Positions 14,363-29,367 of a stretch of DNA of 64,000 bases are shown here, piece by piece. This stretch comes from Pseudobutyrivibrio sp. ACV-2 (lineage in GTDB: Bacteria; Bacillota; Clostridia; Lachnospirales; Lachnospiraceae). The translations under genes and the position numbers were made by a program. Position 1 is the stretch's first letter. The number at the start of each line of letters is the position of its first letter. The notes under the pieces are model-generated. The model was not told the DNA's origin. It worked only from the letters and a program-made list of their open reading frames with translations, and searched no databases. The DNA is taken from positions 52,325 to 116,324 of the forward strand of contig NZ_FNQZ01000010.1 of assembly GCF_900107545.1 (NCBI RefSeq), read 5' to 3'.

Positions 14363-16330
14363 TTATCTCCTATTACATTTGTATATTATTACATCAGAGT
14401 TGACGTAAACGCTTTTAAGCTGTGGATTTGAATCCATGTAGTCTGGGTGAGACAACTTTGTCACCACTAAATAATCTATGTCATTTTCTTCTAGTGCATT
14501 CTGCTGCACCAGAGGGTCGTCACTAAAGAACAGATTATTGGTAGAAAGCATTTCTTCCACCTTTGATTCTGGTACATCTGAATAGTCATAACCCTCTAAA
14601 TAGCACTGACGCTCAGCAAATGCACTGGCATAAAAATAGATATTTCTGTAATCAAGCTCTTCTGAGAGCCTGTCCACAGCAAGCACAGAATCTGCTGGAG
14701 TATTGTCCCTCAGCCAGAAATATGCATCCATTGTATCACTGCTTACAAGATCTGCTCTATCCTCGGCTGGGGTATGGAAAATTACCATCTGATTGAAATC
14801 GTCCTGACAGTAATGAACCACATCTGCCACTAAAAGCAAGGTGCAGATGCAGAACCAGCCCTGCATTATTTTGAATATAGGTGTAAGACGGTTGGCCATA
14901 AGATATTTCATTGTACAGTAAAATATCAAGCCAGCGTTGGTAATCACAAAGTACACCTGTGATTGGCCTGGGACACTTATAAAAAGAAATCCGATTAAGC
15001 CCATAAGTGATGAACCGATAGCAAACCAGTCAAAAACATCGCCAATTACACCATCTTTAATGAGGGTCTGGAATTTGCCGATAGTGAATGCAACAAAAAG
15101 TGCTATACATGGGCCCATAATAAATAGCGCTGCAAGAATAACTGCAAGGATTACCCAAGGCATGGCCATATAGTCGATTCCAAGCTTGCTGAAAATCTGA
15201 CCTACTCTGCCGGATTCAAGTGTACCGGCGCAGGTAAGCTGCATGGCACGGTTGTTAGAACCTGATGAATGAAGCCCTACTGTTACACCAAAATAGATAA
15301 GGGCAAAGCCCAAGGTTAATGCCACGTTATATAAAAGCTGTTGCACATGGAAACGTTTAATTATTATCCACTCCACAACAAAAACAATCCAGGTGATAGC
15401 AACAAGCAAAATACCTGTTGTTCCCTTAAAGCCTGTGGCTGCTGCACCAAGCAAAAATATTGCTATAACATTCGTAAATACAAGCTTATCATACCATATT
15501 TCAGTAAGCACATCGATTGTGAGAATGGTTAGGCTCACTGCAAGTCCCATGGCGTTACCATTTCCAAAAAAATGATTATCCATCCATGAGAGTGGGAATC
15601 TGCCCCCCAACACGTTTAATGGAAGGAGGCATATTCCAGAGATAAGTAAACCGAAGCAGAAGAAAAAGTACTCGAAATTGTAGTAGGATTTAGCTCCGCG
15701 GATTCTTTCTCCCAATGTGATTAAAGCAAGGGTAAGAGGGAATGCACAAATCAATGCATTGCCGTTCATATAGACTGTGAATGCATCTGTAGCGAAGATA
15801 TGCTTGCACATTGCAAAAATCAGCTCATAAAAATAATGATAATAAAAGGTCAGACCTGAAATTCTGATATCCATCCCTGGGAATGAGCGACTGAGGGATA
15901 CTATGTTTCCTGTATGAAACAGGAAATCATGGTAGACCTGTGTGGTCTGGCCTGAAAATGCGAACAGATATTTAAGTTGAAAACTTAGTGCTGAAACAAT
16001 ATAGATAAACACGAAAATAATCAGATAGGTGAACCTGAAGTGTTCTCCTGCATTGAAAATGTATGGCTTACCTTTTTTGATGAAATATATCAGGCCTGCT
16101 GTAGATGTGAGTGGGCCTGCCAACATGATTAAACCATTTAGGCCAGCCAATGACTCTATGAAATAAAGGGCTGCCATGTACACAAAACCTATAAAAAATC
16201 CTGCCAGAAGTCTGGTTGAAAACTTGAATCTGCGGGGAAGTAAAATATCACAAAAAAGCATCCCTGGTAGTTGAATCCAAACGATGCAGTACGCTAAAAA
16301 TATTAATGTTGTGGAAATACTAAATGTCAT
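14363..16330 (-). CDS. Large polytopic membrane protein of a glycan cluster
   Basis: 655 residues with roughly twelve to fourteen hydrophobic segments through residue 510, then an extracytoplasmic domain (TPAEDRADLVSSDTMDAYFWLRD). The overall plan, many helices plus a C-terminal soluble domain beginning with a residue set such as WLRDNTPADSVLAVD, is common in GT-C-like or oligosaccharide-modifying membrane proteins. I cannot name a family with confidence. It is immediately upstream of the FkbH-like gene (5-nt gap) and shares its operon. GAGG precedes its ATG. Confidence 0.6.
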   Translation of the reverse strand: MTFSISTTLIFLAYCIVWIQLPGMLFCDILLPRRFKFSTRLLAGFFIGFVYMAALYFIESLAGLNGLIMLAGPLTSTAGLIYFIKKGKPYIFNAGEHFRFTYLIIFVFIYIVSALSFQLKYLFAFSGQTTQVYHDFLFHTGNIVSLSRSFPGMDIRISGLTFYYHYFYELIFAMCKHIFATDAFTVYMNGNALICAFPLTLALITLGERIRGAKSYYNFEYFFFCFGLLISGICLLPLNVLGGRFPLSWMDNHFFGNGNAMGLAVSLTILTIDVLTEIWYDKLVFTNVIAIFLLGAAATGFKGTTGILLVAITWIVFVVEWIIIKRFHVQQLLYNVALTLGFALIYFGVTVGLHSSGSNNRAMQLTCAGTLESGRVGQIFSKLGIDYMAMPWVILAVILAALFIMGPCIALFVAFTIGKFQTLIKDGVIGDVFDWFAIGSSLMGLIGFLFISVPGQSQVYFVITNAGLIFYCTMKYLMANRLTPIFKIMQGWFCICTLLLVADVVHYCQDDFNQMVIFHTPAEDRADLVSSDTMDAYFWLRDNTPADSVLAVDRLSEELDYRNIYFYASAFAERQCYLEGYDYSDVPESKVEEMLSTNNLFFSDDPLVQQNALEENDIDYLVVTKLSHPDYMDSNPQLKSVYVNSDVIIYKCNRR

Positions 16331-16375: not shown

Positions 16376-16459
16376 GCTTGTTACGCTAACAAAGTTGATA
16401 TCTCTACGCTCAACTTAGAATGTTTCGCTTAAGAGATATCAACTTTGTTAGCTACAAGC
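16376..16459. repeat. 84-nt covarying palindrome, copy 1
   Basis: The outer arms are GCTTGT and ACAAGC. Inside them, after a small internal loop (TACG on one side), lies a perfect 20-bp stem running from CTAACAAAG through to ATCTCT. The apical loop is ACGCTCAACTTAGAATGTTTCGCTTA-like, with two changes from the other copies. The same element occurs at 19920-20003 and 29284-29367, each exactly 84 nt. It lies upstream of the 16330 gene and downstream of thymidine kinase. No open reading frame occupies it. Confidence 0.85.
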
Positions 16460-16532
16460 TTACTTTTTCTAGGATCCAACTCTGGTAGAGTTGATTCCGC
16501 GAAAAATTTATCTTTTAGCTATAAACGCTTAT

Positions 16533-17099
16533 TTATTCTGGACGGAGTTGTCCCAACTTAAAGTGTTTGCGGCATAACGCTATGTAGGAGTCGTTGGCTC
16601 CTAACATCACCTGAGGGCCGCTGCGAACTACGCCGTTTTCGTTGTAACGGGTGTTGCAGGTGGCTTTGCGGCCGCACCAGCATACAGTTTTCACTTCATG
16701 GATTACGTCAGCTATGGCAATCAGGCGCTTTGACCCTGGAAACAGTTCGTTTTTAAAATCGGCCCTGAGGCCATAAGCCACCACTGGTACATCCATAAAA
16801 TCTACAATATCAGATAGATAGTCTACCTGTTCAGGTGTGGCAAACTGCACCTCATCAACGATGATGCAGTCATATTTTTTAATCTCTTCCTCAGACATTT
16901 CTACCAAATCCTCTAGGAAGATACATTCGTTTTCTAAGCCTATACGAGAATGTACCACCCGTTCTCCATCCCTTGTATCCACTGCTGGCTTCACAAGAAG
17001 GGCGTTTTGGCCTACCTCCTGATAGTTGAAGTGTGTCATAAGTGCATTGGCTGTCTTGGATGACCCCATTGCTCCATAGTAAAAATATAGTTTTGCCAT
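16533..17099 (-). CDS. tdk: Thymidine kinase (type II)
   Basis: 188 residues from the ATG at 17097-17099 (MAKLYFYYGAMGSSKT). The longer open frame to 17192 has no ribosome site and would add 31 atypical residues. Motifs: Walker A GAMGSSKT, Walker B/lid CIIVDEVQFATPEQ, the zinc-binding cysteines CWCGRKATC plus a late CRKHF, and VMLGANDSYIALC for thymidine binding. It phosphorylates thymidine to dTMP in the salvage pathway. Length and order match type II kinases of Firmicutes. It stands alone between an 84-nt repeat and a TPR protein gene. Confidence 0.93.
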   Translation of the reverse strand: MAKLYFYYGAMGSSKTANALMTHFNYQEVGQNALLVKPAVDTRDGERVVHSRIGLENECIFLEDLVEMSEEEIKKYDCIIVDEVQFATPEQVDYLSDIVDFMDVPVVAYGLRADFKNELFPGSKRLIAIADVIHEVKTVCWCGRKATCNTRYNENGVVRSGPQVMLGANDSYIALCRKHFKLGQLRPE

Positions 17100-17199
17100 T
17101 TTATAAACTCCCGCACATAAATTGACAGAAGACCGATTAAATGTCTTCTGTCTAATTGATAACATTATAAATATTAAAGGCTTAACTGTCAAAAATGTT

Positions 17200-18252
17200 T
17201 CATTCCTTAAGCTGAATCTGGGAACGAAGATTTAGTGTGGTGATAAATGAGTGCCTTCCTTCTTCTGCCTTAATTGAATCAAACAGGAAATAGTTGTAAG
17301 CTGAATCTTTCATTTTTTCGAAATCACCTATTTCGCGATACATTTTAATCTTGAAGGTTTCCATGTGAAGCCTAAGATTCATGATATCCTCGTAATCATC
17401 AACTCCATCTATGCGCTCAAATATTTTTTCAAGCTCAACATAATCTTTGTCCTCAAGAAGTAGTGATACCAGTCCCACTATCTCATCAAAATGTCTGACG
17501 AAATCATTACACTGATAAAAGGCCTGAATACAAGCAATCTTGCTTTCATCTGATTTCTTTCTGTCTCCTGCATCGTGATAATAGTAAAATCTTGCAATGC
17601 ATACATCAAAGGCACTATCAAACTCAGGGTATAACCTGATTAGCATTTCCATATCTCGCAGTGTTTCTCTTGCTTCTTCAAATTTCTCAAGCTCCACAAA
17701 CTGCTTTGCAATCAAAGAATATTCTCCGATTAGAAATGTGTTTTTTATATATGGATCTTCGATATACCCACAGCATTCTACCGCTCTATAGTGATACTCC
17801 AGGCTTTCTACCATACCACCCATCTGCTCACATAAGGCTGCAAAATTGGAGCAAATCATGCCTTCCATAAAATAGAGCTTGTACTTTCGTGCACGACTAA
17901 TTCCGGTTAAATAGCATTCTTCGCTGGTGATGAAATGTCCTTCACTTCTAAAAATCGTACCCATCTCATTATAGCTCTGACATACCAGCATATGCTCTTC
18001 TGTTTGAGACAAACCATCTATTCCAGCAGAAAGATAATATAATGCCTGAGAAAAATCATTGTTCTGGCAGCTGGCATCTCCCAAGGTACAGCTGGCAAAG
18101 TCTTTAAGTAAGTCATCTCCCTGCTCCTGAGCCATATCAAATAAATCGCAGGCCAAGTCTAAGTGACGTTTGTTATCCACTTTTCTGACTGCATTTATTT
18201 CTTTTATATATTCTACTACTTCAGGTGATTTAAGATTAAATAACTCGCTCAC
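17200..18252 (-). CDS. TPR-repeat protein
   Basis: 350 residues composed of tandem helical hairpins of TPR type (FSQALYYLSAGIDGL, YNEMGTIFRSEGHFITSEECYLTGI, SNFAALCEQMGGMVESLEYHYRA, FEEARETLRDMEML). No catalytic domain is visible. In this bacterial family such repeats commonly form the sensory half of diguanylate cyclases. Here the chain stops at LNLRSQIQLKE, just where a coiled coil and GGDEF domain would usually follow, so it may be a free-standing scaffold or a shortened relative. No signal peptide; predicted cytoplasmic. Confidence 0.7.
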   Translation of the reverse strand: MSELFNLKSPEVVEYIKEINAVRKVDNKRHLDLACDLFDMAQEQGDDLLKDFASCTLGDASCQNNDFSQALYYLSAGIDGLSQTEEHMLVCQSYNEMGTIFRSEGHFITSEECYLTGISRARKYKLYFMEGMICSNFAALCEQMGGMVESLEYHYRAVECCGYIEDPYIKNTFLIGEYSLIAKQFVELEKFEEARETLRDMEMLIRLYPEFDSAFDVCIARFYYYHDAGDRKKSDESKIACIQAFYQCNDFVRHFDEIVGLVSLLLEDKDYVELEKIFERIDGVDDYEDIMNLRLHMETFKIKMYREIGDFEKMKDSAYNYFLFDSIKAEEGRHSFITTLNLRSQIQLKE

Positions 18253-18312
18253 TATTTAAATCCTCGCTATTTAAAAATGTCGATAACACTAATAGCAAAA
18301 TCTATATCTTAT

Positions 18313-19173
18313 TTAGTTCTGCAAATACAGAGCTGCAGTTAAAATACCATTATTAGCAGTTTCCCATACAACTATATTAGAATCGTATTTATTCACAAAT
18401 TTTAAATCCAAGGTATTTCCTGAGATTGTTGCATCCCATCCTGCTGGTAAATAATTTACAGGAAGTGAATGTGGATGACGCTCAGAAGCAGGAACCCCTG
18501 CAGTTTTCATAGCAGCATAAATAGTGGAAGAAACCTGACAAACTCCACCACCAATGCCAATAGCATGCTCCTTATTGATGAAAACAGGTGCATCTACAAA
18601 ACCGTTTGCTGCTGTGCGAGGTCCAATAGCCTTGTTGGCAGAGAAGGTCTTTCCTGGCTCCACAACCGTACCATTAACATGACCTGCTGCAATAGCAATG
18701 TTATTACCTCGTGGTGCCTCATGGTTATATTCTGTTGAATATATGCCTAAAAGCGTGTAGGTCTTTGGTACGACTATCTCTGTACCTGCAACAGGAATTC
18801 CATCTCTTCCTTCAAACTGTCCTACATTAGCGTAGTGATACACATATGCGAGCATATTGTCCCCATAAAGTATCTGAAGGTCCGGATTTTTCTGCATGTA
18901 ATCTGTGGCATTAAATGTAGCGCTGGCATTTCTGTTTTCGTAAATACCATGATAAATATAGTGATTTAATAGCCACAGCTGACTACCATTTGAATAAGCT
19001 GCCACATCAGGATAAAGTGTAGCATAGTAGTCTGCATCAAAAACCTTTGCGGCTGCCTGTAACTCATCATTTGAGGCTGCACTTACCGTAAGATTTGGCG
19101 ATACCGCAAATGCGATAATTACAAAAGTCATCGAGATAATAATTTTGGCAATATGCAATTGTATTTTTTCCAT
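18313..19173 (-). CDS. Secreted VanW-family protein with N-terminal DYYATLYPDV repeats
   Basis: 286 residues. A signal peptide spans residues 1-32 (MEKIQLHIAK followed by a hydrophobic core). Two short repeats follow, FDADYYATLYPDVAAY and FNATDYMQKNPDLQIL, each ending in a HY..HG/GQFEGR tail; this repeat type is common on Lachnospiraceae surface proteins. The C-terminal 150 residues are VanW: TFSANKAIGPRTA, GGGVCQVSSTIYAA and HPHSLPVNYLPAG. VanW is a domain of unknown function found beside peptidoglycan-binding modules and in vancomycin-resistance loci; resistance should not be inferred here. Start has GGGAGGGG upstream. Confidence 0.88.
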   Translation of the reverse strand: MEKIQLHIAKIIISMTFVIIAFAVSPNLTVSAASNDELQAAAKVFDADYYATLYPDVAAYSNGSQLWLLNHYIYHGIYENRNASATFNATDYMQKNPDLQILYGDNMLAYVYHYANVGQFEGRDGIPVAGTEIVVPKTYTLLGIYSTEYNHEAPRGNNIAIAAGHVNGTVVEPGKTFSANKAIGPRTAANGFVDAPVFINKEHAIGIGGGVCQVSSTIYAAMKTAGVPASERHPHSLPVNYLPAGWDATISGNTLDLKFVNKYDSNIVVWETANNGILTAALYLQN

Positions 19174-19240
19174 AAAACCCCTCCCAATATGTAAATCGTT
19201 TGATTAGTATGAATATTTTAACACTTTTGTAAATACAATA

Positions 19241-19266
19241 AAAGAGCGCCAAACTTGGCGCTCTTT
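19241..19266 (-). terminator. Terminator of the 19284-19766 gene
   Basis: AAAGAGCGCC AAACTT GGCGCTCTTT type hairpin, 17 nt past the stop codon; the A/T-rich arms make it usable in both directions. Confidence 0.85.
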
Positions 19267-19283
19267 AAAATTCTGTGAACTTT

Positions 19284-19766
19284 TTATTTGTTTTTATTCT
19301 GTTCTGCTTCGAGCTCTTTGCGCTTCTTTAACGCCCATGCTCTAAGGCCCTTTTTCTTTTTAGCTTCCACTGGAGCATTTCCTCCGCGAAGTCCTCTTAC
19401 CTTTGTGATGTAGAGACCAGAAACTGTAGCCTTAACTTCCTTTTTAACAGGAATCTGGTCGAAAATTTCTCCGTCAGCGATAAGTGTCATCATCTGTGGG
19501 CCAACCTTGGCCTTGACAACAGGTACTTTCATGCCCTTCTGATACCAAGGAACTGCATTCATCATCTGCTCTGGGAATCCTGCATCCTTGAACTTCATCA
19601 TCTTTTTATCGATGATAAGCATTGAAACCTGCTGTGCCATGGCATCCATCTGAACCTGCTGTTCAGCACGACGTGCCTCGGCTTTTTTCCCCATAAAATA
19701 TAAAGCAACGAATGCCGCAATCAATATCACAAGGATTACAAGCATAACGATTATTGGTGTGCTCAT
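19284..19766 (-). CDS. Small membrane-anchored protein of unknown function
   Basis: 160 residues. Residues 5-26 form one transmembrane helix (IIVMLVILVILIAAFVALYF). A basic coiled segment follows (GKKAEARRAEQQVQMDAMAQQ), then a globular part with FPEQMMNAVPWYQKGMKVPVV and a Lys-rich tail. I do not recognise the family. The layout resembles Lachnospiraceae single-pass proteins with a cytoplasmic domain. It has AGGAGG before the ATG and its own terminator, so it is probably monocistronic. Confidence 0.7.
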   Translation of the reverse strand: MSTPIIVMLVILVILIAAFVALYFMGKKAEARRAEQQVQMDAMAQQVSMLIIDKKMMKFKDAGFPEQMMNAVPWYQKGMKVPVVKAKVGPQMMTLIADGEIFDQIPVKKEVKATVSGLYITKVRGLRGGNAPVEAKKKKGLRAWALKKRKELEAEQNKNK

Positions 19767-20104
19767 ATTATATCCTCCTAACTACGGGGACCCTCTGAAT
19801 ATAGGGTCACAACTAGGTTATATCTTATCATGTTAGGGATGGAAAAGCAATATGTGTCGTGGCTAGCCCTTAGGCTGTGGCTCGCGTAGTTGAGATGGCT
19901 AGCCCTTAGGCTGTGGCTCGCCAGTTACGGTCACAAGCCCTAGGTCTCTACGCTCAGCTTAGAATGCTTCGCTTAAGAGACCTAGGGCTTGTTACCTACT
20001 GGCTATCTAGACTTTTGTCTAGAGGCGCAGCATTGTTATTTATTGGCTGTATAGACAAACGTCTAGAACGCGAACTTGTAATATGGTTGATTACCCTACG
20101 CATT
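19767..20104. repeat. 338-nt intergenic region made of repeats
   Basis: No gene seen. It holds a 25-nt direct repeat beginning GGCTAGCCCTTAGGCTG at 19861 and again at 19897 (period 36), the second copy abutting the 84-nt palindrome at 19920. Bases 20004-20070 contain two TCTAGAC/GTCTAG-like inverted motifs (CTAGACTTTTGTCTAG at 20007; ATAGACAAACGTCTAG at 20051). Confidence 0.7.
19920..20003. repeat. 84-nt covarying palindrome, copy 2
   Basis: Outer arms GCCAGT and ACTGGC; inner perfect stem ACAAGCCCTAGGTCTCT with its complement; apical loop ACGCTCAGCTTAGAATGC followed by TTCGCTTA. The loop is identical to copy 3, while the stem sequence differs completely from copy 1 and still pairs. It lies downstream of the glycogen phosphorylase stop codon. 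Confidence 0.85.
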
Positions 20105-22354
20105 TTATAGGTGCCAGATATCCTCGTTGTATTGAGCTATTGTACGGTCGCTTGAGAAGAAGCCTGCGTTGGCGATGTTTTTGATCATTTTGCGGCCCCA
20201 CTCTGTGCGGTCTTCGAATGCCTTGTATGCCTTTTCCTTTGTCTCGCAGTAATCCTTGAAGTCTGGGAATGTCATGAACCAGTCCTTATTTAAGAGCTCG
20301 TTGTAGAGACGCTCAAGGTTCTCTCGCTGGCCTACTTCCATGAGCTTGTCAGATACGATGAAGTCTACGCATTTCTTGAGGTTTGCGTCCTTCTCGTAGT
20401 AGTCGCGTGAGCAGTAGCTTGCGTCTGCATAGCGCTTGATTACTGTGTCTGAATCCTCACCGAAGATGAAGATGTTGTCATCGCCTACGAAATCGTGCAT
20501 CTCTACGTTTGCACCGTCCATAGTACCGATGGCTACGGCACCGTTGAGCATGAACTTCATGTTTGAAGTACCAGATGCTTCCTTAGAAGCAAGTGAAATC
20601 TGCTCGTGAATATCGCAAGCTGGAATAAGCTTCTCAGCAAGTGTTACGTTGTAGTTTTCAACCATAACTACATTGAGATATGGGCTAACCTCTGGATCCT
20701 TTGCAATGATTTCCTGGAGGCAGAGGATAAGGTGGATGATATCTTTTGCGATCACGTAAGCTGGAGCTGCCTTCGCACCAAAGATAACTGTGATTGGGCG
20801 AGCTGGCTTCTTGCCTTCCTTAATCTCGAAGTACTTGTTGATTACATAAAGTGCGTTCATCTGCTGACGCTTGTACTCGTGAAGTCTCTTAATCTGGATA
20901 TCGTAAACGCTGTTGTCATCGATTTCGATACCCTGTGTCTTTGCAAGGTATTTCTTGAGAACAGTCTTACGTGTATTCTTAACATCAAGGAACTTCTGAA
21001 CTACAGCATCATCGTTCATGAACTGCTCAAGCTTCTTTAGCTCTGTAGCGTCCTTCTTGAAGCCTGGTCCGATGAGCTCTTCGATAAGCTTTGAAAGCTC
21101 TGGGTTGCAATATAATAACCAACGACGGAATGTAATACCGTTTGTCTTGTTGTTGAATTTCTCTGGGTAGAGCTCATAGAACTTGTGAAGCTCTGTCTCC
21201 TTTAAAATCTCTGTGTGAAGAGCTGCAACACCATTGATTGAAATACCATAGTGAATATCCATGTGTGCCATGTGAACAAGTCCGTCTCTGATGATAGCAA
21301 CATCTGGATCTGCAACCTTTCTTGCTACGCGGTTGTGAAGCTCGCGGATAATAGGCATAAGCTGTGGGACAGCCTTCATCATGAAGTGGATTGGCCACTT
21401 CTCAAGGGCCTCAGCGAGGATTGTGTGGTTAGTGTAAGCTGTGCACTTAGAAACCACATCAATTGCCTCGTCCATTGTAAGACCACGAATCTGAAGGAGT
21501 CGAACTAACTCAGGAATAACCATTGAAGGGTGTGTATCATTAATCTGGATTACTGCATAATCAGCAAGGTCATAAAGGTTTGAGCCCTTTTCTACAGCCT
21601 CATCTAAAATGAGCTGTGCAGCGTTTGAAACCATGAAATACTGCTGATATACGCGAAGTAATCTTCCGTTGTCATCTGAATCATCCGGATAAAGGAAGAG
21701 AGTAAGGTTTTTTGTAAATGCAGCCTTATCGAAGCTAATGCCCTCGCCGATGATGCTCTCATCTACTGTGTCTACATCAAAAAGATGTAGCTTTGTTGTT
21801 ACTGAATCATAGCCTGTAACATCAATATCATACATGCGGGATGTAACATTGAAACCACCAAAATCTACCTGGTAAGTTCTCTCTGTCTTTGTCATCCAGC
21901 TGTGATGTCTCATCCATGGGTTTGGTTCTTCAGTCTGAAGATTGTTTTTAAATACCTGTTTGAAAAGACCCATATGATATGCAAGACCAACACCATCACC
22001 ATTAAGACCAAGTGTTGCGATTGAATCAAGGAAGCAAGCTGCAAGTCTACCAAGACCGCCGTTACCTAAAGATGGCTCAACTTCGATTTCCTCGATTTCA
22101 GCAAGTGACTTTCCGCAAGCCTCAAGCTCTGCCTTTACTTCATCATAAAGTCCAAGGTTAATAAGGTTATTTGATAAAAGCTTTCCGATAAGGAACTCTG
22201 CACTGATGTAGTAAAGCTTCTTCTTACCACCGGCAATTTCCTTATTCTTTGCCTGATCCTTTACATACTCTAAGAGACCAATGTAGATTTCTTCATTTGT
22301 ACACTGATCCATGTGACGACCAAATCTTACCTTGATATACTCGTTTGCTGTCAT
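20105..22354 (-). CDS. glgP: Glycogen phosphorylase
   Basis: 749 residues from the ATG at 22352-22354 ([12 protein letters not shown]), which has AGGAGG seven bases before it; the open frame extends 25 codons further but without a site. Motifs: [19 protein letters not shown] near residue 95, [31 protein letters not shown], and the pyridoxal-phosphate lysine in [15 protein letters not shown]. It releases glucose 1-phosphate from storage glycogen or maltodextrin. The length is a little short of the usual 800, typical of clostridial enzymes. The AraC-type regulator is divergent, 175 nt away, and might control it. Confidence 0.93.
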
Positions 22355-22478
22355 TTTATCCTCCTCATAAAAAGTGCTGATATGTTTTTTCTTTTGGGAT
22401 TGCTTGAAAATTTCTGAACACATCAGCAATTAACTATCAACTCTGATGACAGTATAATCTCGTTTACGTGATTTAGGC

Positions 22479-22508
22479 TTGCGCAATCGTATTAAAAAGT
22501 GATACTAT
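22479..22508 (+). promoter_or_regulatory. Possible promoter of the AraC-type regulator
   Basis: TTGCGC at 22479-22484 and TACTAT at 22503-22508 are separated by 18 nt and lie 22 nt before the ATG. The match is moderate. The 175-nt divergent region must also hold the glgP promoter on the minus strand. Confidence 0.4.
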
Positions 22509-22529
22509 TCTATCATCCTGGAGGTGCAT

Positions 22530-23402
22530 ATGTTAAATATTAATGATTATCAGGCCATTCATGAGAGGACCAGCCACTTCGATTACAACATTCCTTACAA
22601 CACATACCCATGTACTATTCCACTAGACTTCGAGTCGGTGCCACTACACTGGCATGAGGATGTGGAGTTTATTTACATAAAAAAAGGCCGTGGAATCCTT
22701 GTTATTGAAGGTGTTGAATATAATGTTTCAGCTGGAGATATTGCTTTTTTAATTCCTGGAAATATTCACGGAATTTTTCAATATGAAGATGACTCTATGG
22801 AATACGAAAATATTCTTTTCGATGAGAAAATGTTTTCTTCTTCCCTTGATGAATTTTATGATAGTTTTCTATTACCATTTTTCCAGAACACTGTAGATGT
22901 ACCTCACGTCTTTAGTCAGGGTGTACCAGGATACGAAAGTATTAAGCGATATTTAGATGCCAATGATAATATATCATCCCACCGGGAAGGTGCCTGGGGA
23001 CTGGCCATCAAGGGTAATCTGTATCTACTTTTATTTAATCTGGTTACTTTATATGAAGAGAAAATAGATGCTTCCAGCAAAAAGAATATAGATAAGCTCA
23101 AACCTGTCATCAAACACGTAGAATTACATTATAGCGAGCCTACCACTGTAGCTGATATGGCAGATATAGCCGGTTTCTCTGAGTCACACTTTATGCGATT
23201 TTTCAAGGAGACCTTCGGTGTAAGCTTTATCACCTATCTAAACGACTATAGACTTTCCATGGCAGCACGCCTGTTACTGTCTACGGAAGAGAATATTTTA
23301 GATATTTCTCAGGAAGTTGGGTTTGATAATCTGTCACATTTCAACAGACAGTTCAAGAAAAAATATAATAAGACGCCAAAAGAATATCGATTGAATCAGT
23401 GA
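22530..23402 (+). CDS. AraC-family transcriptional regulator with cupin sensor domain
   Basis: 290 residues from the ATG at 22530; GGAGG lies five bases before it, and a GTG six bases upstream is the alternative. Residues 30-110 form a cupin-type sugar-binding domain (VPLHWHEDVEFIYIKKGRG, IPGNIHGIF). Residues 195-290 hold the two AraC helix-turn-helix motifs: VADMADIAGFSESHFMRFFK and ILDISQEVGFDNLSHFNRQF, followed by KKYNKTPKEYR. It is the only intact plus-strand gene of the window. Typical members sense a mono- or oligosaccharide; the target is probably glgP or itself (inference from position). Confidence 0.9.
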   Translation: MLNINDYQAIHERTSHFDYNIPYNTYPCTIPLDFESVPLHWHEDVEFIYIKKGRGILVIEGVEYNVSAGDIAFLIPGNIHGIFQYEDDSMEYENILFDEKMFSSSLDEFYDSFLLPFFQNTVDVPHVFSQGVPGYESIKRYLDANDNISSHREGAWGLAIKGNLYLLLFNLVTLYEEKIDASSKKNIDKLKPVIKHVELHYSEPTTVADMADIAGFSESHFMRFFKETFGVSFITYLNDYRLSMAARLLLSTEENILDISQEVGFDNLSHFNRQFKKKYNKTPKEYRLNQ

Positions 23403-23407
23403 TTAAA

Positions 23408-23441
23408 AAATGCTGCCAGTTTTAAAGTGCTGGCAGCATTT
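23408..23441. terminator. Bidirectional terminator between convergent genes
   Basis: Twelve-base arms AAATGCTGCCAG and CTGGCAGCATTT with A runs on the left and T-rich sequence on the right. It serves the AraC regulator (plus) and the SGNH-type gene (minus). Confidence 0.88.
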
Positions 23442-23451
23442 CGTATTTACG

Positions 23452-24540
23452 TTATTTATTTAGTAGTGAAGAATAATCATAGTTCATGTAGAATTCTTTT
23501 TCTACGCTGATGTATTCTTCGTAATTATCTTTAGTTAATCTATCTGTGCCTGAGTAAAGCCAGCCGAGGATTTGAGAGTTAACCCAATCACCATGGTGAC
23601 ACTCGTCACTGTAGTTATCTAAGTTTGTGGTAAGATTAAACTCATTGTTGAAGGAATACAGATGAATGTTGTCGCATTCAAGCATCAATGAGATGGCGTA
23701 TTCCTCTGCAGCTATCCAGCGTTCCACTGTGCCCAGCTCCATCTGAGAGCCCCACCAGGCTATAGAGTATGGTGTCAGGTAATAGTAGAACTGCACATCC
23801 GGATTGGCCTTGGCCAAAGATACCACGTTTTGTATGATGTTGTCATGTACCATCTCTTTTACTTCATCTACAAATGGCTGAATCTCTTCAGGCGAATTGT
23901 ATTCTGCTCTATCCCCTAGCACGATATCTGAACCAAACTGTGCCTCTTCCATCCAGTTTGCATAATCATCAAAGCTTGTTATTCCAGTGGCAGCATCACC
24001 ACTTCTGGCTTCATCAAGCATCGGCAAACAAATATCAAATAGTATCTGTTTATTGAAAATGTATTTCACATCGTTGAATGGATTATTATCGTAGAGATAA
24101 TCGGGATATGAGCCCAGATCATTTCTTACTCTATCCTTATCATCCATCAGATACGCATAATCTAGTGGCCTGATGACAACCTTTAAATCCGGGTTGTATT
24201 TAATGGCTTTAGCTATGTTGTCGTTTTGCTCTTTGTAGGTTCCACCTGCAAATGGGACCTTGATAAAGCTTCCACCAAACAACTCCTCGGCCTCGCTGGT
24301 CTTGAAGTTTTCCGCCATGGATGTGCCTATAATCATTGAGTCATAGTCGAAGTGACGGATGATTCCATCATTTTGGCTGCGCTCGTTGTCCAGGGTGTAG
24401 TATAGGCTGGCCTGAGGCGCGTGGTAGTGGAAGTAGGGGTCTATGTAGATGATTGGGGTGGCAAGGGCACCTAAAATTAATACTATAATTAAGGCTGTTG
24501 CTAGCCACCATTTTTTTGTATTCAACATATAGTCTCTCAT
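23452..24540 (-). CDS. Membrane-anchored SGNH/AlgJ-DltD-like partner of the MBOAT acyltransferase
   Basis: 362 residues with one N-terminal membrane helix (residues 12-32, WLATALIIVLILGALATPI) and an extracytoplasmic domain. DSMIIGTSMAENFKTSE carries the Ser of an SGNH-like GTSMAENF block, and DECHHGDWVNSQILGWL near the end has a plausible Asp-x-x-His (DECH) catalytic pair. Proteins of this build sit beside MBOAT O-acyltransferases in AlgI-AlgJ or PatA-PatB type systems and take the acyl group on the outer side. Its start codon directly abuts the MBOAT stop. An alternative start is MLNTKKWW, four codons in. Confidence 0.78.
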   Translation of the reverse strand: MRDYMLNTKKWWLATALIIVLILGALATPIIYIDPYFHYHAPQASLYYTLDNERSQNDGIIRHFDYDSMIIGTSMAENFKTSEAEELFGGSFIKVPFAGGTYKEQNDNIAKAIKYNPDLKVVIRPLDYAYLMDDKDRVRNDLGSYPDYLYDNNPFNDVKYIFNKQILFDICLPMLDEARSGDAATGITSFDDYANWMEEAQFGSDIVLGDRAEYNSPEEIQPFVDEVKEMVHDNIIQNVVSLAKANPDVQFYYYLTPYSIAWWGSQMELGTVERWIAAEEYAISLMLECDNIHLYSFNNEFNLTTNLDNYSDECHHGDWVNSQILGWLYSGTDRLTKDNYEEYISVEKEFYMNYDYSSLLNK

Positions 24541-26064
24541 TTAGAAATTAAAATATAGGAATGTGCTGATTCCTGACAGGGATGCTATGGACCAGGATAA
24601 AAGGATTGCGGTCCAGAGCATGTTTTTTATGTTTGGTACGAACTGTCGCATTTTTTCTACTGAGTTTTTACAGCCAAGCACGATGAATAGCGCAAGATAG
24701 TAAAATACTCCAACATAGATAAATGGCAGCGAATTAGTCAGTGCCGTGCCGTCCCAGAAATAGTTAAGGCCTGGGATTTTGAAGGCTTCAAGTATGTGGA
24801 CATCTATCGGTGTGAAATCCACATAGAGAATCTGCTTTATTAATGAAATGGCATCACCTATTGTATTTGCTCTGAAAAATACAACTGACAATGTGAAAAA
24901 GCCCTGGGTAATCATCCAACCAAGTGCGGGATGAAGATTGTCAAAGAACTTTTTAAACATTCTGGTGACAATGCAGAATAAACCATTAAGCACCGACCAC
25001 AGCACAAAGGTCCAGGCTGCTCCATGCCAGAAACCACTAAGTAAAAATACTATAAACAAATTTATATATGTGCGGATATTTCCTTTTCGGCTACCACCCA
25101 AAGGAATGTACACATATCTGGTGAAAAATCTGCTAAGGGTCATATGCCAGCGATTCCAGAAATCTGTGATGGTAACAGCTTTATATGGGGAATTGAAATT
25201 CACTGGTAAATCAATGTTTAGCATTTTACCAAGTCCAATGGCCATATCGCAGTATCCACTAAAATCAAAATATAGCTGGAAGCAATATCCCACTGCTATA
25301 AGGATTGCATTTGTAGCTTGAAGTGTTGCCACATTTTCATAGCCCCAGTTTACCGCTATGCCGAATACATCCGCCAAGAGAACCTTTTTTCCCATACCTA
25401 TGGCAAACATATAAAGGCCCTTTGCCATGTTATCCCAGTTAAACTTCTTTTTGGATTTATCCAGAAGCTGTGGTATCAGCTCATCATGGGTCACTATAGG
25501 ACCTGCCACAAGCTGTGGGAAAAATGTGACATAGCATGCGTAAGTCAAAAAATCGTATTCTGGCACTTCGCCTCTAAATGTATCCACTATAAATGAAATC
25601 TGCTGGAATGTGAAAAAGCTGATTCCTAGTGGCAGTAAAATGTGAAGCAGCGGCCAATCCATTTTCATTATCGTATTTACGTTTTCAATAAAGAAGTCCA
25701 TGTACTTGAAATAAAATATTATTCCAAGATTGATGGCTACTCCAAATAGCATGATTGGCTTACACTTTTTTAGCCTGCCAAGAGATGAACCTGCCAGGTT
25801 TTGCAGTTCTTCATTTTCTGTGACTGCCTGAAGTATGGTGGCTCTCTGCATGCCTTTCATCCATCGGTAAAACAGAAAATTGATACATACACTGGAAATG
25901 ATTATCAGCAGATATGATGGATTAAAGTAGCCGTAAAACCACAGGGACATCCCTAGTAAAAAGGCATGTCCCAGTTTGTATTTTCCTGTGTGGTTGAGTG
26001 CAAAGTAGCCAAGTATGCACATTGGCATGAATAAAAATATGAATATATATGAATTGAATAACAT
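24541..26064 (-). CDS. MBOAT O-acyltransferase (AlgI/DltB-like)
   Basis: 507 residues, about eleven membrane helices. It carries the family signatures: FFPQLVAGPIVTHDELIPQL, the FDFSGYCDMAIGLGKM block, NFNSPYKAVTITDFWNRWHMTLSRFF, and SGFWHGAAWTFVLWS with the catalytic histidine near residue 320. It is predicted to bring an acyl group (usually acetyl) across the membrane for O-acylation of a surface polymer, with the downstream SGNH-like protein as final transferase. The polymer is unknown; two polysaccharide clusters lie on either side. It ends at the SGNH gene with no gap. Confidence 0.92.
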   Translation of the reverse strand: MLFNSYIFIFLFMPMCILGYFALNHTGKYKLGHAFLLGMSLWFYGYFNPSYLLIIISSVCINFLFYRWMKGMQRATILQAVTENEELQNLAGSSLGRLKKCKPIMLFGVAINLGIIFYFKYMDFFIENVNTIMKMDWPLLHILLPLGISFFTFQQISFIVDTFRGEVPEYDFLTYACYVTFFPQLVAGPIVTHDELIPQLLDKSKKKFNWDNMAKGLYMFAIGMGKKVLLADVFGIAVNWGYENVATLQATNAILIAVGYCFQLYFDFSGYCDMAIGLGKMLNIDLPVNFNSPYKAVTITDFWNRWHMTLSRFFTRYVYIPLGGSRKGNIRTYINLFIVFLLSGFWHGAAWTFVLWSVLNGLFCIVTRMFKKFFDNLHPALGWMITQGFFTLSVVFFRANTIGDAISLIKQILYVDFTPIDVHILEAFKIPGLNYFWDGTALTNSLPFIYVGVFYYLALFIVLGCKNSVEKMRQFVPNIKNMLWTAILLSWSIASLSGISTFLYFNF

Positions 26065-26068
26065 ATTA

Positions 26069-26113
26069 CCCTCATCCGGCCCGGTGGGCCACCTTCCCCC
26101 TCAGGGGGAAGGC
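26069..26113. repeat. CCTCATCC...CCTTCCCCC intergenic palindromic repeat, copy A
   Basis: CCCTCATCC, then GGCCCGGTGGGCC, then CCTTCCCCCTCAGGGGGAAGG, a GC-rich hairpin in AT-rich surroundings. The last module recurs at 36149-36167. The repeat lies between the MBOAT gene and metY. Confidence 0.75.
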
Positions 26114-26121
26114 TATGGCTT

Positions 26122-27396
26122 TTATTTTAATGCCTGCGCTATATCTGCGATTAGGTCAGAGCTGTCTTCAAGGCCGCAGGATACGCGGATAAGTCCTGCT
26201 GGAATTCCGGCTGCTTCTAGCTGCTCATCTGTCATCTGACGGTGGGTTGATGTAGCTGGATTTAAGCAGCAGCTTCTAGCATCTGCAACGTGTGTTTCGA
26301 TAGCGATAAGCTTGAGCTTTTTCATAAAGCTTTCTGCTGCACTACGTCCGCCTTCAAGCTCGAAGGATACTACGCCGCAGCCTCCCTTTGGAAGATACTT
26401 CTGGGCGATTTCATAGTATTTGTCACCTTCAAGTCCTGGGTATGTAACCTTTTTAACCTCTGGCTGTTCTGATAAGAATTTTGCAACAGCAAGTCCGTTT
26501 TCAACGTGACGTGGCATACGCACATGAAGTGATTCAAGGCCAAGGTTAAGTATGAATGCATGCTGTGGCGACTGGATGCAACCAAAATCTCTCATAAGCT
26601 GTGCTGTACATTTTGTAATGAAAGCACCTTCCTTGCCGAACTTCTCAGCGTATGTAATACCGTGATAGCTGTCATCTGGTGTACAAAGTCCTGGAAATTT
26701 ATCAGCGTGAGCCATCCAGTCGAATTTACCTGAATCTACGATGCAACCTCCTACTGCTGCGCCGTGACCATCCATGTATTTAGTTGTTGAATGAGTGACA
26801 ATATCTGCTCCCCACTCGATAGGTCTGCAGTTTACTGGTGTTGGGAATGTGTTGTCTACGATAAGTGGAACACCATGCTCATGTGCAGCCTTTGCAAATT
26901 TCTCGATGTCTAAAACTGTAAGTGCTGGATTTGCGATTGTCTCGCCAAATACTGCGCGAGTATTTTCCTGGAATGCTGCGTTAAGCTCTTCCTCTGATGC
27001 CATAGGATCGACAAATGTAACATCAACACCCATCTTTTTCATGGTTACAGCGATAAGGTTGAAGGTACCACCATAGATTGATGAGGATGCGACAATGTGG
27101 CTGCCGCATTCACAAATATTGAAAAGTGCAAAAAAGTTGGCTGCCTGTCCTGATGATGTAAGCATAGCTGCTGTACCACCCTCAAGAGCAGCAATCTTTG
27201 CAGCTACATAGTCATTAGTTGGATTTTGAAGACGTGTGTAGAAATAACCTTCTGCCTCAAGGTCAAAAAGCTTTCCCATGTCCTCGCTTGTATCATATTT
27301 AAAAGTAGTAGACTGAACTATTGGAATCTGACGTGGTTCGCCGTTTCCTGGAGTATAGCCAGCCTGTACACATTTTGTTCCAATTCCTTGATTCAT
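26122..27396 (-). CDS. metY: O-acetylhomoserine sulfhydrylase / aminocarboxypropyltransferase
   Basis: 424 residues from the ATG at 27394-27396 (MNQGIGTKCVQAGYTP), with AGGAGG seven bases upstream; the frame opens 11 codons earlier without a site. It belongs to the Cys/Met-metabolism PLP family: YTRLQNPTNDYVAAKIAALEGG, SSGQAANFFAL, VDNTFPTPVNCRP, and the cofactor lysine in THSTTKYMDGHGAAVGG. RVSCGLEDSSDLIADI closes the fold. It makes homocysteine from O-acetylhomoserine and sulfide, feeding methionine synthesis. It is separated from the EamA genes by a terminator, and I see no S-box riboswitch in the short leader. Confidence 0.9.
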   Translation of the reverse strand: MNQGIGTKCVQAGYTPGNGEPRQIPIVQSTTFKYDTSEDMGKLFDLEAEGYFYTRLQNPTNDYVAAKIAALEGGTAAMLTSSGQAANFFALFNICECGSHIVASSSIYGGTFNLIAVTMKKMGVDVTFVDPMASEEELNAAFQENTRAVFGETIANPALTVLDIEKFAKAAHEHGVPLIVDNTFPTPVNCRPIEWGADIVTHSTTKYMDGHGAAVGGCIVDSGKFDWMAHADKFPGLCTPDDSYHGITYAEKFGKEGAFITKCTAQLMRDFGCIQSPQHAFILNLGLESLHVRMPRHVENGLAVAKFLSEQPEVKKVTYPGLEGDKYYEIAQKYLPKGGCGVVSFELEGGRSAAESFMKKLKLIAIETHVADARSCCLNPATSTHRQMTDEQLEAAGIPAGLIRVSCGLEDSSDLIADIAQALK

Positions 27397-27420
27397 CTTT
27401 TTACCTCCTGTTAATAAAAT

Positions 27421-27448
27421 AAGGAGCATACAAAAAAGTACGCTCCTT
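27421..27448 (-). terminator. Terminator of the fnlA/EamA operon
   Basis: AAGGAGC...GCTCCTT stem with further GTAC/GTAT pairing and an A-rich loop. On the minus strand ATTTTATT follows. It lies between the EamA half-transporter stop and metY start. Confidence 0.75.
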
Positions 27449-27488
27449 ACACTTTATCATATTAAAGTAATAATTTAAACTCTATTTA

Positions 27489-27830
27489 CTAGATTCCAAA
27501 GCTGGCAATTACTATACCAACAATGATTACGAGCAATCCAAGCCCCTTCTTTTTGCTGATATGCTCACCCAGGAATATTTTTCCAAGGATTGCTACCCAT
27601 ATGTAACCTGTGGCTTCAAGGATAGGTCCTATAGAAAGCGGTACCATTTTGTAGCCAATTACCGAGCAAAGTGATGCTCCAAAGAAAACAATGTAAGCGC
27701 CCATAACCATTGGATTTAAATACTCAGCGATTTTGCTGGCATATTCTTTTTCAGCTGCCTTTTTCAATACAATCTGAGAGCATGAAGCAATGAATGTACC
27801 GGTGAGCATGATAAGTGCATATTTAAGCAT
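27489..27830 (-). CDS. Half-length EamA/SMR-type transporter subunit B
   Basis: 113 residues, four membrane helices: LIMLTGTFIASCSQIVLKKAA, MVMGAYIVFFGASLCSVIGY, LSIGPILEATGYIWVAILGK and LGLLVIIVGIVIASFGI. The glutamate in LEATGY and the final GxxLIxxGV-like helix match the EamA half fold. It overlaps its partner gene by 8 nt. Such split pairs (compare ArnE/ArnF) act as heterodimers that flip a lipid-linked sugar. Here the pair follows the FnlA gene, so a lipid-sugar substrate is plausible (inference). Confidence 0.78.
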   Translation of the reverse strand: MLKYALIMLTGTFIASCSQIVLKKAAEKEYASKIAEYLNPMVMGAYIVFFGASLCSVIGYKMVPLSIGPILEATGYIWVAILGKIFLGEHISKKKGLGLLVIIVGIVIASFGI

Positions 27831-28218
27831 TTTTCTTGCCCTCCTTTTTCTCTTTTTCTCCTGAGATTACTTCTTCATCTCCGCTAACCACAAGATAAAC
27901 ACCTGCTATAACTACGATAGCTCCGATGATTTTAGGTATGGTTATGCTTTCCTTGAAAATGATAGCCCCCCAAATCAGGCCCCAGATAGTTGTAGCAGCC
28001 TTGTTGGCATAGGTAGTAATCAAAGGTAGATGCTTTAATACCTGCTGCCATGCTATCGCATAGAAACCAAGAATGCATACTACTATTCCATAGAATAAAA
28101 TCCACTTTGGACTTAAAAAATCATACTGAGCAGCAGTTTTTGAGCAAATACTGTTTACAGAAAAAATCAGTATAATAACGTGAAGAATCGCGAACCACTT
28201 TATCGTATCTTTTTTCAT
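27823..28218 (-). CDS. Half-length EamA/SMR-type transporter subunit A
   Basis: 131 residues with four helices (WFAILHVIILIFSVNSICSKTAA, LFYGIVVCILGFYAIAWQQVLK, TIWGLIWGAIIFKESITIP, IIGAIVVIAGVYLVVS) and a charged tail (SGDEEVISGEKEKKEGKKNA). Its stop and the next start overlap. The start codon ATG lies at 28216-28218, and its last base is the first base of the fnlA stop codon, so all three genes are probably translated from one message. A substrate cannot be read from the sequence. Confidence 0.75.
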   Translation of the reverse strand: MKKDTIKWFAILHVIILIFSVNSICSKTAAQYDFLSPKWILFYGIVVCILGFYAIAWQQVLKHLPLITTYANKAATTIWGLIWGAIIFKESITIPKIIGAIVVIAGVYLVVSGDEEVISGEKEKKEGKKNA

Positions 28219-29261
28219 TATTTACCCCAATTCTCCAACATTTCTCTAACGTAATCTGTAGTCATGATTTTATCTACAGTACCCTGAACATCAAGGCGCT
28301 TTGTATTGTGTGATGTGTAAGAGTCTGATGCCATGGTATGAACCTCACCATCTACAAAGAACTTGTCATAGTTAAGGTCACGTCCATCTGGAAGAACTCG
28401 GTAGTAATCACCCATATCTACGGCACGAACGCACTCTTCATTAGTCATAAGTGTCTCGTAAAGCTTTTCGCCGTGACGAGTACCGATGATTTTTGTGCCT
28501 GTGTCACCAAAGAGCTGCTGAACAGCCTTTGCTAAATCTCCGATTGTAGAAGCATCTGACTTCTGAACAAAAAGGTCACCTGGCTCACCATGTTCGAAAG
28601 CAAACATAACAAGAGCAACTGCCTCATCAAGGTTCATAAGGAAACGAGTCATCTCTGGATCTGTGATGGTGATTGGGTTACCTGCCTTAATCTGATCGAT
28701 GAAAAGTGGAATAACTGAACCACGAGAGCACATAACATTACCGTAACGAGTGGTGCAGATAGTGGTTTTGCCTGCTGCAACACGTGCATTAGCACCGATT
28801 ACTTTTTCCATCATGGCCTTTGAAATACCCATGGCATTGATAGGGTAAGCTGCCTTGTCTGTTGAAAGACATACTACACGCTGAACGCCAGCTTCTACTG
28901 CTGCATGAAGTACATTGTCTGTACCCTCTACATTTGTACGAACTGCTTCCATTGGGAAGAACTCGCATGATGGAACCTGCTTAAGGGCAGCTGCATGGAA
29001 GATGAAATCAACACCTGGCATAGCATCCTGAACTGAGCGCATATTGCGAACATCGCCGATGTAAAATTTAACCTTGCCAGCAAGGTCTGGGTGCTCTGCC
29101 TGAAGCTGATGACGCATATCATCCTGCTTTTTCTCATCACGTGAGAAAATACGAATTTCCTTTAAATCTGAATCAAGGAAATGCTTAAGTACTGTAGAAC
29201 CGAATGAACCTGTTCCTCCTGTAATCATCAAAGTCTTGTCTTTAAATAATTCACAATTCAT
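28218..29261 (-). CDS. fnlA: UDP-GlcNAc 4,6-dehydratase/5-epimerase (CapE/FnlA-type)
   Basis: 347 residues, extended SDR fold. N-terminal MITGGTGSFGSTVLKHFL binds NAD(P). Then FSRDEKKQDDMRHQL, YIGDVRN, FHAAALKQVPSCEF and STDKAAYPINAMGISKAMMEK, which has Met in place of the usual catalytic Tyr, a hallmark of the CapE/FlaA1 group. It begins conversion of UDP-GlcNAc towards UDP-L-FucNAc. FnlC and FnlB enzymes lie at 29488 and 34695 on the same strand, though other genes are interleaved. AAGGAG precedes its start. An 84-nt palindrome stands between it and fnlC. Confidence 0.9.
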   Translation of the reverse strand: MNCELFKDKTLMITGGTGSFGSTVLKHFLDSDLKEIRIFSRDEKKQDDMRHQLQAEHPDLAGKVKFYIGDVRNMRSVQDAMPGVDFIFHAAALKQVPSCEFFPMEAVRTNVEGTDNVLHAAVEAGVQRVVCLSTDKAAYPINAMGISKAMMEKVIGANARVAAGKTTICTTRYGNVMCSRGSVIPLFIDQIKAGNPITITDPEMTRFLMNLDEAVALVMFAFEHGEPGDLFVQKSDASTIGDLAKAVQQLFGDTGTKIIGTRHGEKLYETLMTNEECVRAVDMGDYYRVLPDGRDLNYDKFFVDGEVHTMASDSYTSHNTKRLDVQGTVDKIMTTDYVREMLENWGK

Positions 29262-29283
29262 GATTTTTTATTCTCCTTAGTCC

Positions 29284-29367
29284 GCTGGTTACGCTAACAA
29301 GTCTGTGACCTCTACGCTCAGCTTAGAATGCTTCGCTTAAGAGGCCTCAGCCTTGTTAGCTACCAGC
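29284..29367. repeat. 84-nt covarying palindrome, copy 3
   Basis: Outer arms GCTGGT and ACCAGC, inner CTAACAAG/CTTGTTAG, then a partly mismatched segment and CCTCT/AGAGG. The apical loop is identical to copy 2. Bases 29366-29380 (GCTCATCTAATTATT) recur at 29415-29429 just outside. It lies between fnlC and fnlA. Confidence 0.85.

What the first reader, a model, noticed from the sequence alone, without database searches (positions are those of the whole stretch)
16376..29367. Three 84-nt palindromes with conserved loop and compensatory stems
Copies at 16376-16459, 19920-20003 and 29284-29367 are exactly 84 nt. The loop (ACGCTCAGCTTAGAATGC then TTCGCTTA) is nearly identical in all, while outer arms are GCTTGT/ACAAGC, GCCAGT/ACTGGC and GCTGGT/ACCAGC. 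Each is fully paired within its copy, so changes in one arm are matched in the other. A simple copied palindrome would keep stem and loop alike; pairing kept while sequence changes points to selection on structure, either as RNA or as a cruciform target. All lie outside genes, next to stop codons.
Basis: seen in the sequence. Interest (0 to 1): 0.75.

Follow-up and report, generated by a model that had tools for sequence, protein, structure and literature searches.

The report
Shape-keeping RNA hairpins hopping between genes
Three look-alike hairpins in this Pseudobutyrivibrio genome belong to a family of at least 61 copies here, and from a handful to more than a hundred in 26 of 28 sister species, that keeps its folded shape while its stem letters differ from copy to copy, so it likely works as RNA inside messages between genes and probably spreads like a tiny mobile element.

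Summary
In detail: three 84-nt hairpins sit at the stated coordinates. They fold far better than shuffled sequence (z -9.7, -9.9, -6.0). They are not a trio. A covariance model finds 61 matches with E below 1e-5 in this genome and 128 matches in one sister species. It matches 26 of 28 other Pseudobutyrivibrio genomes and none of 32 genomes of other genera. In 20 copies, 24 of 32 base pairs carry two-sided changes; no shuffle of 500 covaries as much. Wobble is strand-specific: G·U outnumbers A·C 197 to 29, so selection reads one single strand, most simply RNA. 148 of 231 copies lie in sense between codirectional genes, median 36 nt before a start codon; others sit in terminator tips. Species differ in presence, copies nest inside copies, and two-sided changes recur between species upstream of the same gene. 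No Rfam family reached its gathering score on an element in the stretches scanned. Best reading: a genus-specific dispersed repeat under RNA-structure selection, likely an mRNA stability or processing element. RNA function and spreading mechanism are inferred; structure, strand bias, location and turnover are shown. The mobiliser is unknown.

The parts
16376..16459 (-). Hairpin element copy 1 (84 nt), between a thymidine kinase gene and the 655-aa gene 14363-16330
   Evidence: (111.8 bits, model R1)
19920..20003 (-). Hairpin element copy 2 (84 nt, type-2 frame), between a carbohydrate phosphorylase gene and gene 19284-19766
   Evidence: (117.9 bits)
29284..29367 (-). Hairpin element copy 3 (84 nt, type-1 frame GAGC...GCGGACTAA), between a UDP-GlcNAc 2-epimerase gene and a polysaccharide biosynthesis gene
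   Evidence: (115.8 bits)
16402..16435 (-). Conserved class-A tip of copy 1 (CUCUUAAGCGA..UUGAGCGUAGAG; 5'GA/5'GA internal loop)
   Evidence: alignment A1
19946..19979 (-). Conserved class-A tip of copy 2
   Evidence: alignment A1
29310..29343 (-). Conserved class-A tip of copy 3
   Evidence: alignment A1
16380..16385 (-). CGUAAC, 3' side of the conserved basal internal loop of copy 1
   Evidence: alignment A1
16452..16455 (-). GUAG, 5' side of the conserved basal internal loop of copy 1
   Evidence: alignment A1
14363..16330 (-). Gene downstream of copy 1 (655 aa, no Pfam match)
16533..17192 (-). Gene upstream of copy 1: thymidine kinase (PF00265)
19284..19766 (-). Gene downstream of copy 2 (160 aa; DUF4330 below cut-off)
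20105..22429 (-). Gene upstream of copy 2: carbohydrate phosphorylase (PF00343)
28218..29261 (-). Gene downstream of copy 3: polysaccharide biosynthesis protein (PF02719)
29488..30645 (-). Gene upstream of copy 3: UDP-GlcNAc 2-epimerase (PF02350)

Best explanation
These are three copies of a dispersed, genus-specific family of hairpins whose base pairing is conserved in a strand-specific way while the stem letters change, so the family likely acts as RNA in the transcript, is predicted to tune the stability or processing of the mRNA between neighbouring genes, and probably spreads by being copied into the loops of other hairpins. Shown: the common architecture (outer stem; an internal loop of A opposite GUA; a stem with CAA/UUG, invariant in the first 20 copies; a tip, usually with a 5'GA/5'GA internal loop), covariation, the G·U over A·C excess on one strand, sense placement between codirectional genes, presence and absence between species, nesting, different tips on the same basal part, and placement in terminator tips in either orientation. 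Inferred: that the element is transcribed and folded, that a protein or RNase recognises the constant internal loop and tip, that the effect is on mRNA stability, processing or insulation, and that copying targets hairpin loops; no mobiliser was identified.
For: Covariation: 95.5% of 638 cells paired, 24 of 32 pairs with two-sided changes, 0 of 500 shuffles as high, slid controls 30-45% paired. Strand asymmetry: G·U 197 vs A·C 29 in 231 distinct copies; 61 vs 7 in 158 copies picked by a sequence pattern only. Copies upstream of the same gene in different species keep pairing through two-sided changes: 5 of 42 pairs (cysK), 5 of 43 and 12 of 28 (a peptidyl-prolyl isomerase gene), 14 of 45 (hbd). 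Placement: own genome 49 of 63 sense between codirectional genes vs 6 antisense; the random-position control is 1:1 by construction; 66 of 76 type-1-framed copies with a sense gene downstream lie 15-80 nt before its start. Spread: orthologous sites with and without the element for smpB, PPIase and hbd; nested copies; an identical 76-nt core at two sites about 1.38 Mb apart in G012; downstream of cysK a sense core in G013, an antisense core in G017 and a short loop in G027 within similar terminator stems.
Against: No expression data, no binding partner and no biochemical test. Downstream genes are too diverse to point to one regulon. Copies placed antisense to the genes still show the G·U bias on the element's own strand (17:4, n=26), which fits inheritance from sense copies but also a function of the element's own RNA. 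Pairing is loose next to the CAA/UUG: in the four pairs before it 450 of 632 cells are Watson-Crick and 137 are mismatches other than G·U or A·C. No clean target-site duplication was found in the site pairs compared. The model was trained on copies found by sequence and the 231 copies include orthologues, so counts are not independent events; reduces the training bias but uses the same loci.
Confidence: 0.55

Rival explanations
1. A purely selfish DNA element (MITE- or REP-like): single-stranded DNA hairpins recognised by a transposase keep the stem paired, and the placement near genes is only what selection tolerates.
For: High copy number, presence/absence, nesting and near-identical copies. 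GTAG at the 5' foot recalls GTAG-tagged REPs (passages of PMC3733652). A single-strand DNA target could also tolerate G·T. The bias persists in antisense copies.
Against: Y1 transposase domains are found in 10 of 29 genus genomes and RVT_1 reverse transcriptase domains in 15 of 29; neither is found in, among others, G008, G012, G017, G020 and G022, which carry 50, 36, 35, 21 and 33 exact-pattern copies. Other transposase families were not searched. No terminal duplication in compared sites. Strong sense bias between codirectional genes.
Confidence: 0.25
2. A cis-regulatory leader RNA (riboswitch or protein-controlled leader) of a large regulon, inherited vertically.
For: Sense position 15-80 nt before start codons; conserved internal loop and tip; loops conserved with helices covarying.
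Against: Downstream genes are diverse (protein starts listed; names such as atpE, smpB, der and era are my recognition of the sequences, not a family search). Copies nest, sit in terminators in both orientations and come and go between species. No Rfam family reached its gathering score on an element in the stretches scanned. No alternative terminator or RBS-sequestering fold was looked for systematically.
Confidence: 0.1
3. A DNA palindrome whose arms are kept matched by intra-palindrome template-switch correction, with no function in RNA.
For: Correction of one arm from the other would create matched changes in both arms; apparent hairpin loss between species is seen.
Against: Correction yields Watson-Crick pairs and no strand preference, but G·U exceeds A·C 197:29. 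The tip and basal loop are more conserved than the stem, and the GA/GA mismatches are kept.
Confidence: 0.05
4. Ordinary intrinsic transcription terminators with decorated tips.
For: 26 of 231 copies are classed as terminator-framed by a T-run after the outer stem; a looser T-run test gave 48 of 215; 41 of 231 lie at convergent gene ends.
Against: 135 of 231 copies are in type-1 or type-2 frames, and 98 of these lie 15-80 nt before a sense start codon; the same core occurs in both settings.
Confidence: 0.05

Closest known systems
BOX, RUP and SPRITE repeats of Streptococcus pneumoniae (PMC3049150, passages read)
   Same: Short structured repeats dispersed between genes; predicted to act when co-transcribed; repeats split by insertion of another repeat; one resembles a terminator.
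   Different: A different host; sequences were not compared here. The held main text has no word beginning compensatory or covari; here the stem differs from copy to copy while pairing is kept, and different tips occur on the same base.
Transcribed intergenic stem-loop repeats: nemis/Correia, ERIC, Ype, Efa (PMC1590033, abstract and passages)
   Same: Intergenic, co-transcribed, RNA hairpins proposed to change mRNA stability; RNase III processing at nemis is stated in a passage of PMC4524435.
   Different: Described as families of similar sequence; no strand-specific covariation of this kind appears in the passages I saw.
GTAG-tagged REPs and RAYT transposases (PMC3733652, passages; size from the abstract start)
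   Same: GTAG at one foot of a repeated extragenic hairpin.
   Different: 20-40 bp units tied to a tyrosine transposase; here 84 nt, GT of GTAG is base-paired, and several copy-rich genomes have no Y1 transposase hit.
Repetitive hairpin elements of mitochondrial genomes (sponge RHE, PMC2800124 section 22 and passages; LIMP, PMC4524435 passages)
   Same: Repeated, apparently mobile hairpins in intergenic regions.
   Different: In sponge RHEs stems are conserved and loops vary; here the opposite holds, as that paper says of other structured RNAs.

Membership tests
Any Rfam 15 family | Covariance-model match reaching the gathering score | tested here: not met
   Window 10000-35000 and 24 loci: nothing at gathering score on an element; three microRNA models match stems far below their gathering scores. 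The other loci were not scanned
GTAG REP / REPtron | GTAG tetranucleotide at one foot of the hairpin | tested here: met
   18 of 20 copies of A1 have GUAG; L005 has CUAG and L019 AUAG
GTAG REP / REPtron | 20-40 bp palindromic unit | tested here: not met
   84 nt in the window copies
GTAG REP / REPtron | Dedicated RAYT (Y1) transposase in the genome | tested here: not met
   Y1_Tnp domain in 10 of 29 genomes, no hit in several copy-rich genomes
MITE | Target-site duplication flanking the insertion | tested here: inconclusive
   Differing site pairs show no clean duplication; flanks there are 69-92% identical and some differences look like losses
MITE | Terminal inverted repeats shared with an autonomous element | not tested
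   No search for an autonomous partner with these ends was made
Riboswitch / cis-regulatory leader | Upstream of functionally related genes | tested here: not met
   Diverse downstream protein starts in the list, judged by eye
Structured RNA | Covarying helices with conserved loops | tested here: met
   R-scape not available
Structured RNA | Transcribed and folded in cells | not testable with these tools
   No RNA data at hand
Intrinsic terminator | Stem followed by a T-run | tested here: not met
   Met by a minority only: 26 of 231 copies; 48 of 215 by a looser test

The most novel reading that the evidence does not exclude
A bacterial SINE-like element: a short RNA-structured parasite, partly domesticated, that inserts its core into the loops of existing mRNA hairpins and terminators, nests in its own copies, exchanges tips, and survives only while its RNA fold is kept, spreading in hosts in which neither a Y1 transposase nor a reverse transcriptase gene was found.
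Probability: 0.3. Interest if true: 0.85.

Novelty: new variant of a known kind. Interest (0 to 1): 0.68.

Why it matters
Small dispersed palindromes are common in bacteria, but to my knowledge it is rarely clear whether RNA or DNA is the selected form. Here the sequences speak to that: stem letters change, pairing is kept, and the wobble pair allowed on one strand is the one that accumulates. Because the same gene can be compared with, without and (downstream of cysK) with an inverted core in sister species, the family is a ready-made experiment on how an mRNA hairpin between two cistrons affects expression, and on how hairpins can spread into other hairpins without an obvious transposase. 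It is also a large RNA family for which the Rfam 15 scans made here found no entry.

Tried and rejected
Rejected: chance palindromes; cruciform or arm-correction alone; phage or plasmid origin: five pattern hits in viral contigs give no model match at E up to 1 and do not fold as the element, and one window copy has no match among plasmids. Y1 transposase or RVT_1 reverse transcriptase as a required present-day mobiliser: presence does not follow copy number. A precise insertion boundary with target-site duplication: not obtained; the site pairs mix gains, losses and tandem copies. Pattern hits L016 and L022 do not form the hairpin and were dropped. Five opposite-strand model hits on true copies were dropped, and identical cores were counted once, before counting (291 alignment rows gave 231 distinct copies). 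In one search the sets were chosen by similar arrangement; hits left out are L206 and L210 (hbd) and L178, L184, L191, L195, L201, L204 (PPIase). The first gene caller truncated genes and was replaced. Literature: searches combining Pseudobutyrivibrio or Butyrivibrio with repeat/hairpin, intergenic/palindromic, structured RNA/motif/noncoding, repetitive element, or riboswitch gave listings (titles and abstract starts; for only 12 of 1,162) in which I saw no description of this family. Only open-licence papers are held.
Full report
OBSERVATION. The three palindromes are exactly where stated and 84 nt each. On the minus strand they fold to -43.8, -53.5 and -44.3 kcal/mol, beyond all 200 dinucleotide shuffles. 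They share two constant regions: a basal internal loop (GUAG on the 5' side, CGUAAC on the 3' side) and a tip (CUCUUAAGCGAAGC..AAGCUGAGCGUAGAG in consensus) with a 5'GA/5'GA internal loop. The stem between them differs between copies. Copy 1 breaks none of 32 consensus pairs, copy 2 one, copy 3 two plus one G·U. So the arms are complementary within each copy, but 'fully paired' overlooks the constant internal loops.

FAMILY AND RANGE. A 15-base tip pattern with up to 2 mismatches has 22 hits in the own genome; 20 form the hairpin. A covariance model R1 built from those 20 gives 62 matches at E up to 1, 61 of them below 1e-5, although only 150 of 1303 first-look candidates were scored. One sister genome, G003, has 128 matches at E up to 1, all but five below 1e-5, again with 150 candidates scored. 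Among 60 relatives, 26 of 28 genomes of the same genus have matches and 0 of 32 of other genera (stricter filters, 61 candidates scored per genome). In a family-wide sample 2 of 397 genomes match, both of this genus, but only 9 candidates per genome were scored there. An exact sequence pattern with a free inner part hits 27 of 29 genus genomes with 3 to 76 copies each, against 0 or 1 per genome and strand for the reversed pattern. A tip pattern across GTDB species hits 25 loci, all titled Pseudobutyrivibrio. The two genus members without copies, G007 and G021, are the most divergent by SmpB identity (82% and 76%) and are 86% and 83% complete.

SELECTION ON PAIRING, ON ONE STRAND. In the 20-copy alignment 24 of 32 pairs have two-sided changes, 95.5% of 638 cells pair, and the covariation score 0.576 compares with 0.171 for shuffles (0 of 500 as high) and 0.036-0.092 for slid partners. 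Relatedness can inflate such counts, so two further tests were made. First, copies upstream of the same gene in different species show two-sided changes: 5 of 42 pairs (cysK, 7 species), 5 of 43 and 12 of 28 (PPIase, 6 species each), 14 of 45 (hbd, 8 species); the last set includes the outer nested stem. Some of these pairs also have unpaired members. Orthology rests on the flanking gene, and independent insertion at the same place is not excluded. Second, mutation on a DNA palindrome is strand-symmetric and should give G·T and A·C mismatches equally. Observed over 231 distinct copies: 6787 Watson-Crick cells, 197 G·U, 29 A·C, 283 other. Among 158 copies chosen only by a pattern that ignores the tested pairs the count is 61 G·U to 7 A·C, with 733 Watson-Crick and 147 other cells of 948; the other cells are mostly A·A, A·G and U·U in the four pairs before the CAA. 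The favoured strand is the one carrying GUAG...CGUAAC. Selection therefore acts on a single-stranded form of this strand, RNA being the simplest.

PLACEMENT. With a simple gene caller of my own, 49 of 63 own-genome copies lie in sense between two codirectional genes, 6 antisense, 5 at convergent ends, 1 divergent, 2 lacking a neighbour; the random intergenic control takes both strands of each position, so sense and antisense are equal by construction (1517 each of 3470), with 296 divergent. Over 231 copies from all loci: 148 sense, 26 antisense, 41 convergent, 4 divergent, 12 lacking a neighbour; for the sense class the median distance to the next start codon is 36 nt and to the preceding stop codon 58 nt. 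Examples are copies between atpB and atpE, ilvD and ilvB, rnr and smpB, thiolase and hbd (translations); these gene names, and cysK and PPIase, are my recognition of the sequences, not a family search. Two recurrent frames surround the core, TGAGC..GCGGACTAA (89 of 231) and ATAGC..GCGAG (46 of 231); 26 are terminator-like with a T-run and 70 are unclassed. In the window all three copies are in sense.

TURNOVER. Orthologous intergenic regions differ in carrying the element. rnr-smpB has 2 nt between stop and start in G010 and a full element in G000, G026 and G008; G015 appears to have lost it but keeps the GAGCCAAAACCTA flank. Copies nest: a type-2 core inside a type-1 frame at hbd and PPIase, and copies inside copies in G003 (L138, L143). 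Different tips occur on the same basal part: class A, a GAGUAUAGCGAAAGCGAU tip in this species, and GGAGCCAAUCUCGCGACGG tips elsewhere. An identical 76-nt core lies at two sites about 1.38 Mb apart in G012, and two own-genome copies are 98% identical (L093, L095). Downstream of cysK, 28 loci were read: five carry a full core (G012, G020, G016, G013, G017), G010 a truncated one, and the rest none that I recognise. Within similar stems, G013 has the core in sense, G017 in antisense, and G027 a short loop that may itself be a remnant. A core also sits, in antisense, in the hairpin that follows a T-box leader (L295). So the movable unit appears to be the core, placed at hairpin tips; this is inference from comparisons, since no insertion was seen happening.

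MOBILISER. Y1 transposase domains occur in 10 of 29 genomes and RVT_1 reverse transcriptase domains in 15 of 29; G008, G012, G017, G020 and G022, with 50, 36, 35, 21 and 33 exact-pattern copies, have neither. The five viral contigs with a pattern match do not carry the element, and one window copy has no match among plasmids. Spread by host replication or recombination between hairpins, or by a lost mobiliser, fits; other transposase families were not searched.

MECHANISM. The element keeps loops and changes helices, as functional RNAs do, and opposite to sponge mitochondrial hairpin repeats, in which stems are conserved and loops vary (PMC2800124 section 22). Its position between cistrons, shortly before start codons, resembles transcribed repeats proposed to change mRNA stability (PMC1590033 passages). 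I therefore commit to an mRNA-level stability, processing or insulating hairpin read by a protein or RNase through the constant internal loop and tip; that step is inferred. One result cuts the other way: copies lying antisense to genes keep the G·U bias on the element's own strand (17:4), which may be inheritance from sense copies or may mean that the element's own RNA matters for its spread.

LIMITS. Candidate caps make copy numbers lower bounds. Gene calls are home-made. Loci were gathered partly by the model itself, and the 231 copies include orthologues. No expression data were available. Literature was limited to open-licence papers; papers were read as passages, abstracts or the one section named.

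Noticed in passing
L211, L213, L221, L223, L225, L227 (upstream of hbd in G017, G012, G016, G019, G008, G015): The same outer frame (AAGTGAG...CGGACTAAA) encloses a quite different, G-rich, apparently structured interior instead of the hairpin core; no Rfam match on it in the five of these six loci that were scanned (L227 was not).
   Followed up: partly
L280:916-1028 and flanks, minus strand: A core sits in the middle of another apparently structured sequence just upstream of an FMN riboswitch.
   Followed up: no
window 19860-19885 and 19896-19921: A 26-nt unit (TGGCTAGCCCTTAGGCTGTGGCTCGC) is repeated next to copy 2; it extends the type-2 flank of the element.
   Followed up: no
window 11601-11810: Sub-threshold matches to the histidine operon leader model on both strands (E 0.12 and 0.21), suggesting another long palindrome.
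   Followed up: no
L106:1501-1670: One class-B copy in this genome has a second hairpin inserted in its tip.
   Followed up: no
G026 C13 near 159.8 kb (L260, about 14740-14940) versus G008 C5 near 227.4 kb (L264): Tandem copies of one hairpin in G026; in G008 the first copy lacks its inside, leaving the two feet.
   Followed up: partly
G000:C4:3195-3524 and G010:C1:2476082-2476408: Y1 transposase-like genes in open frames of 217 and 216 aa, of RAYT-like length; the RAYT label is recalled, not tested.
   Followed up: no
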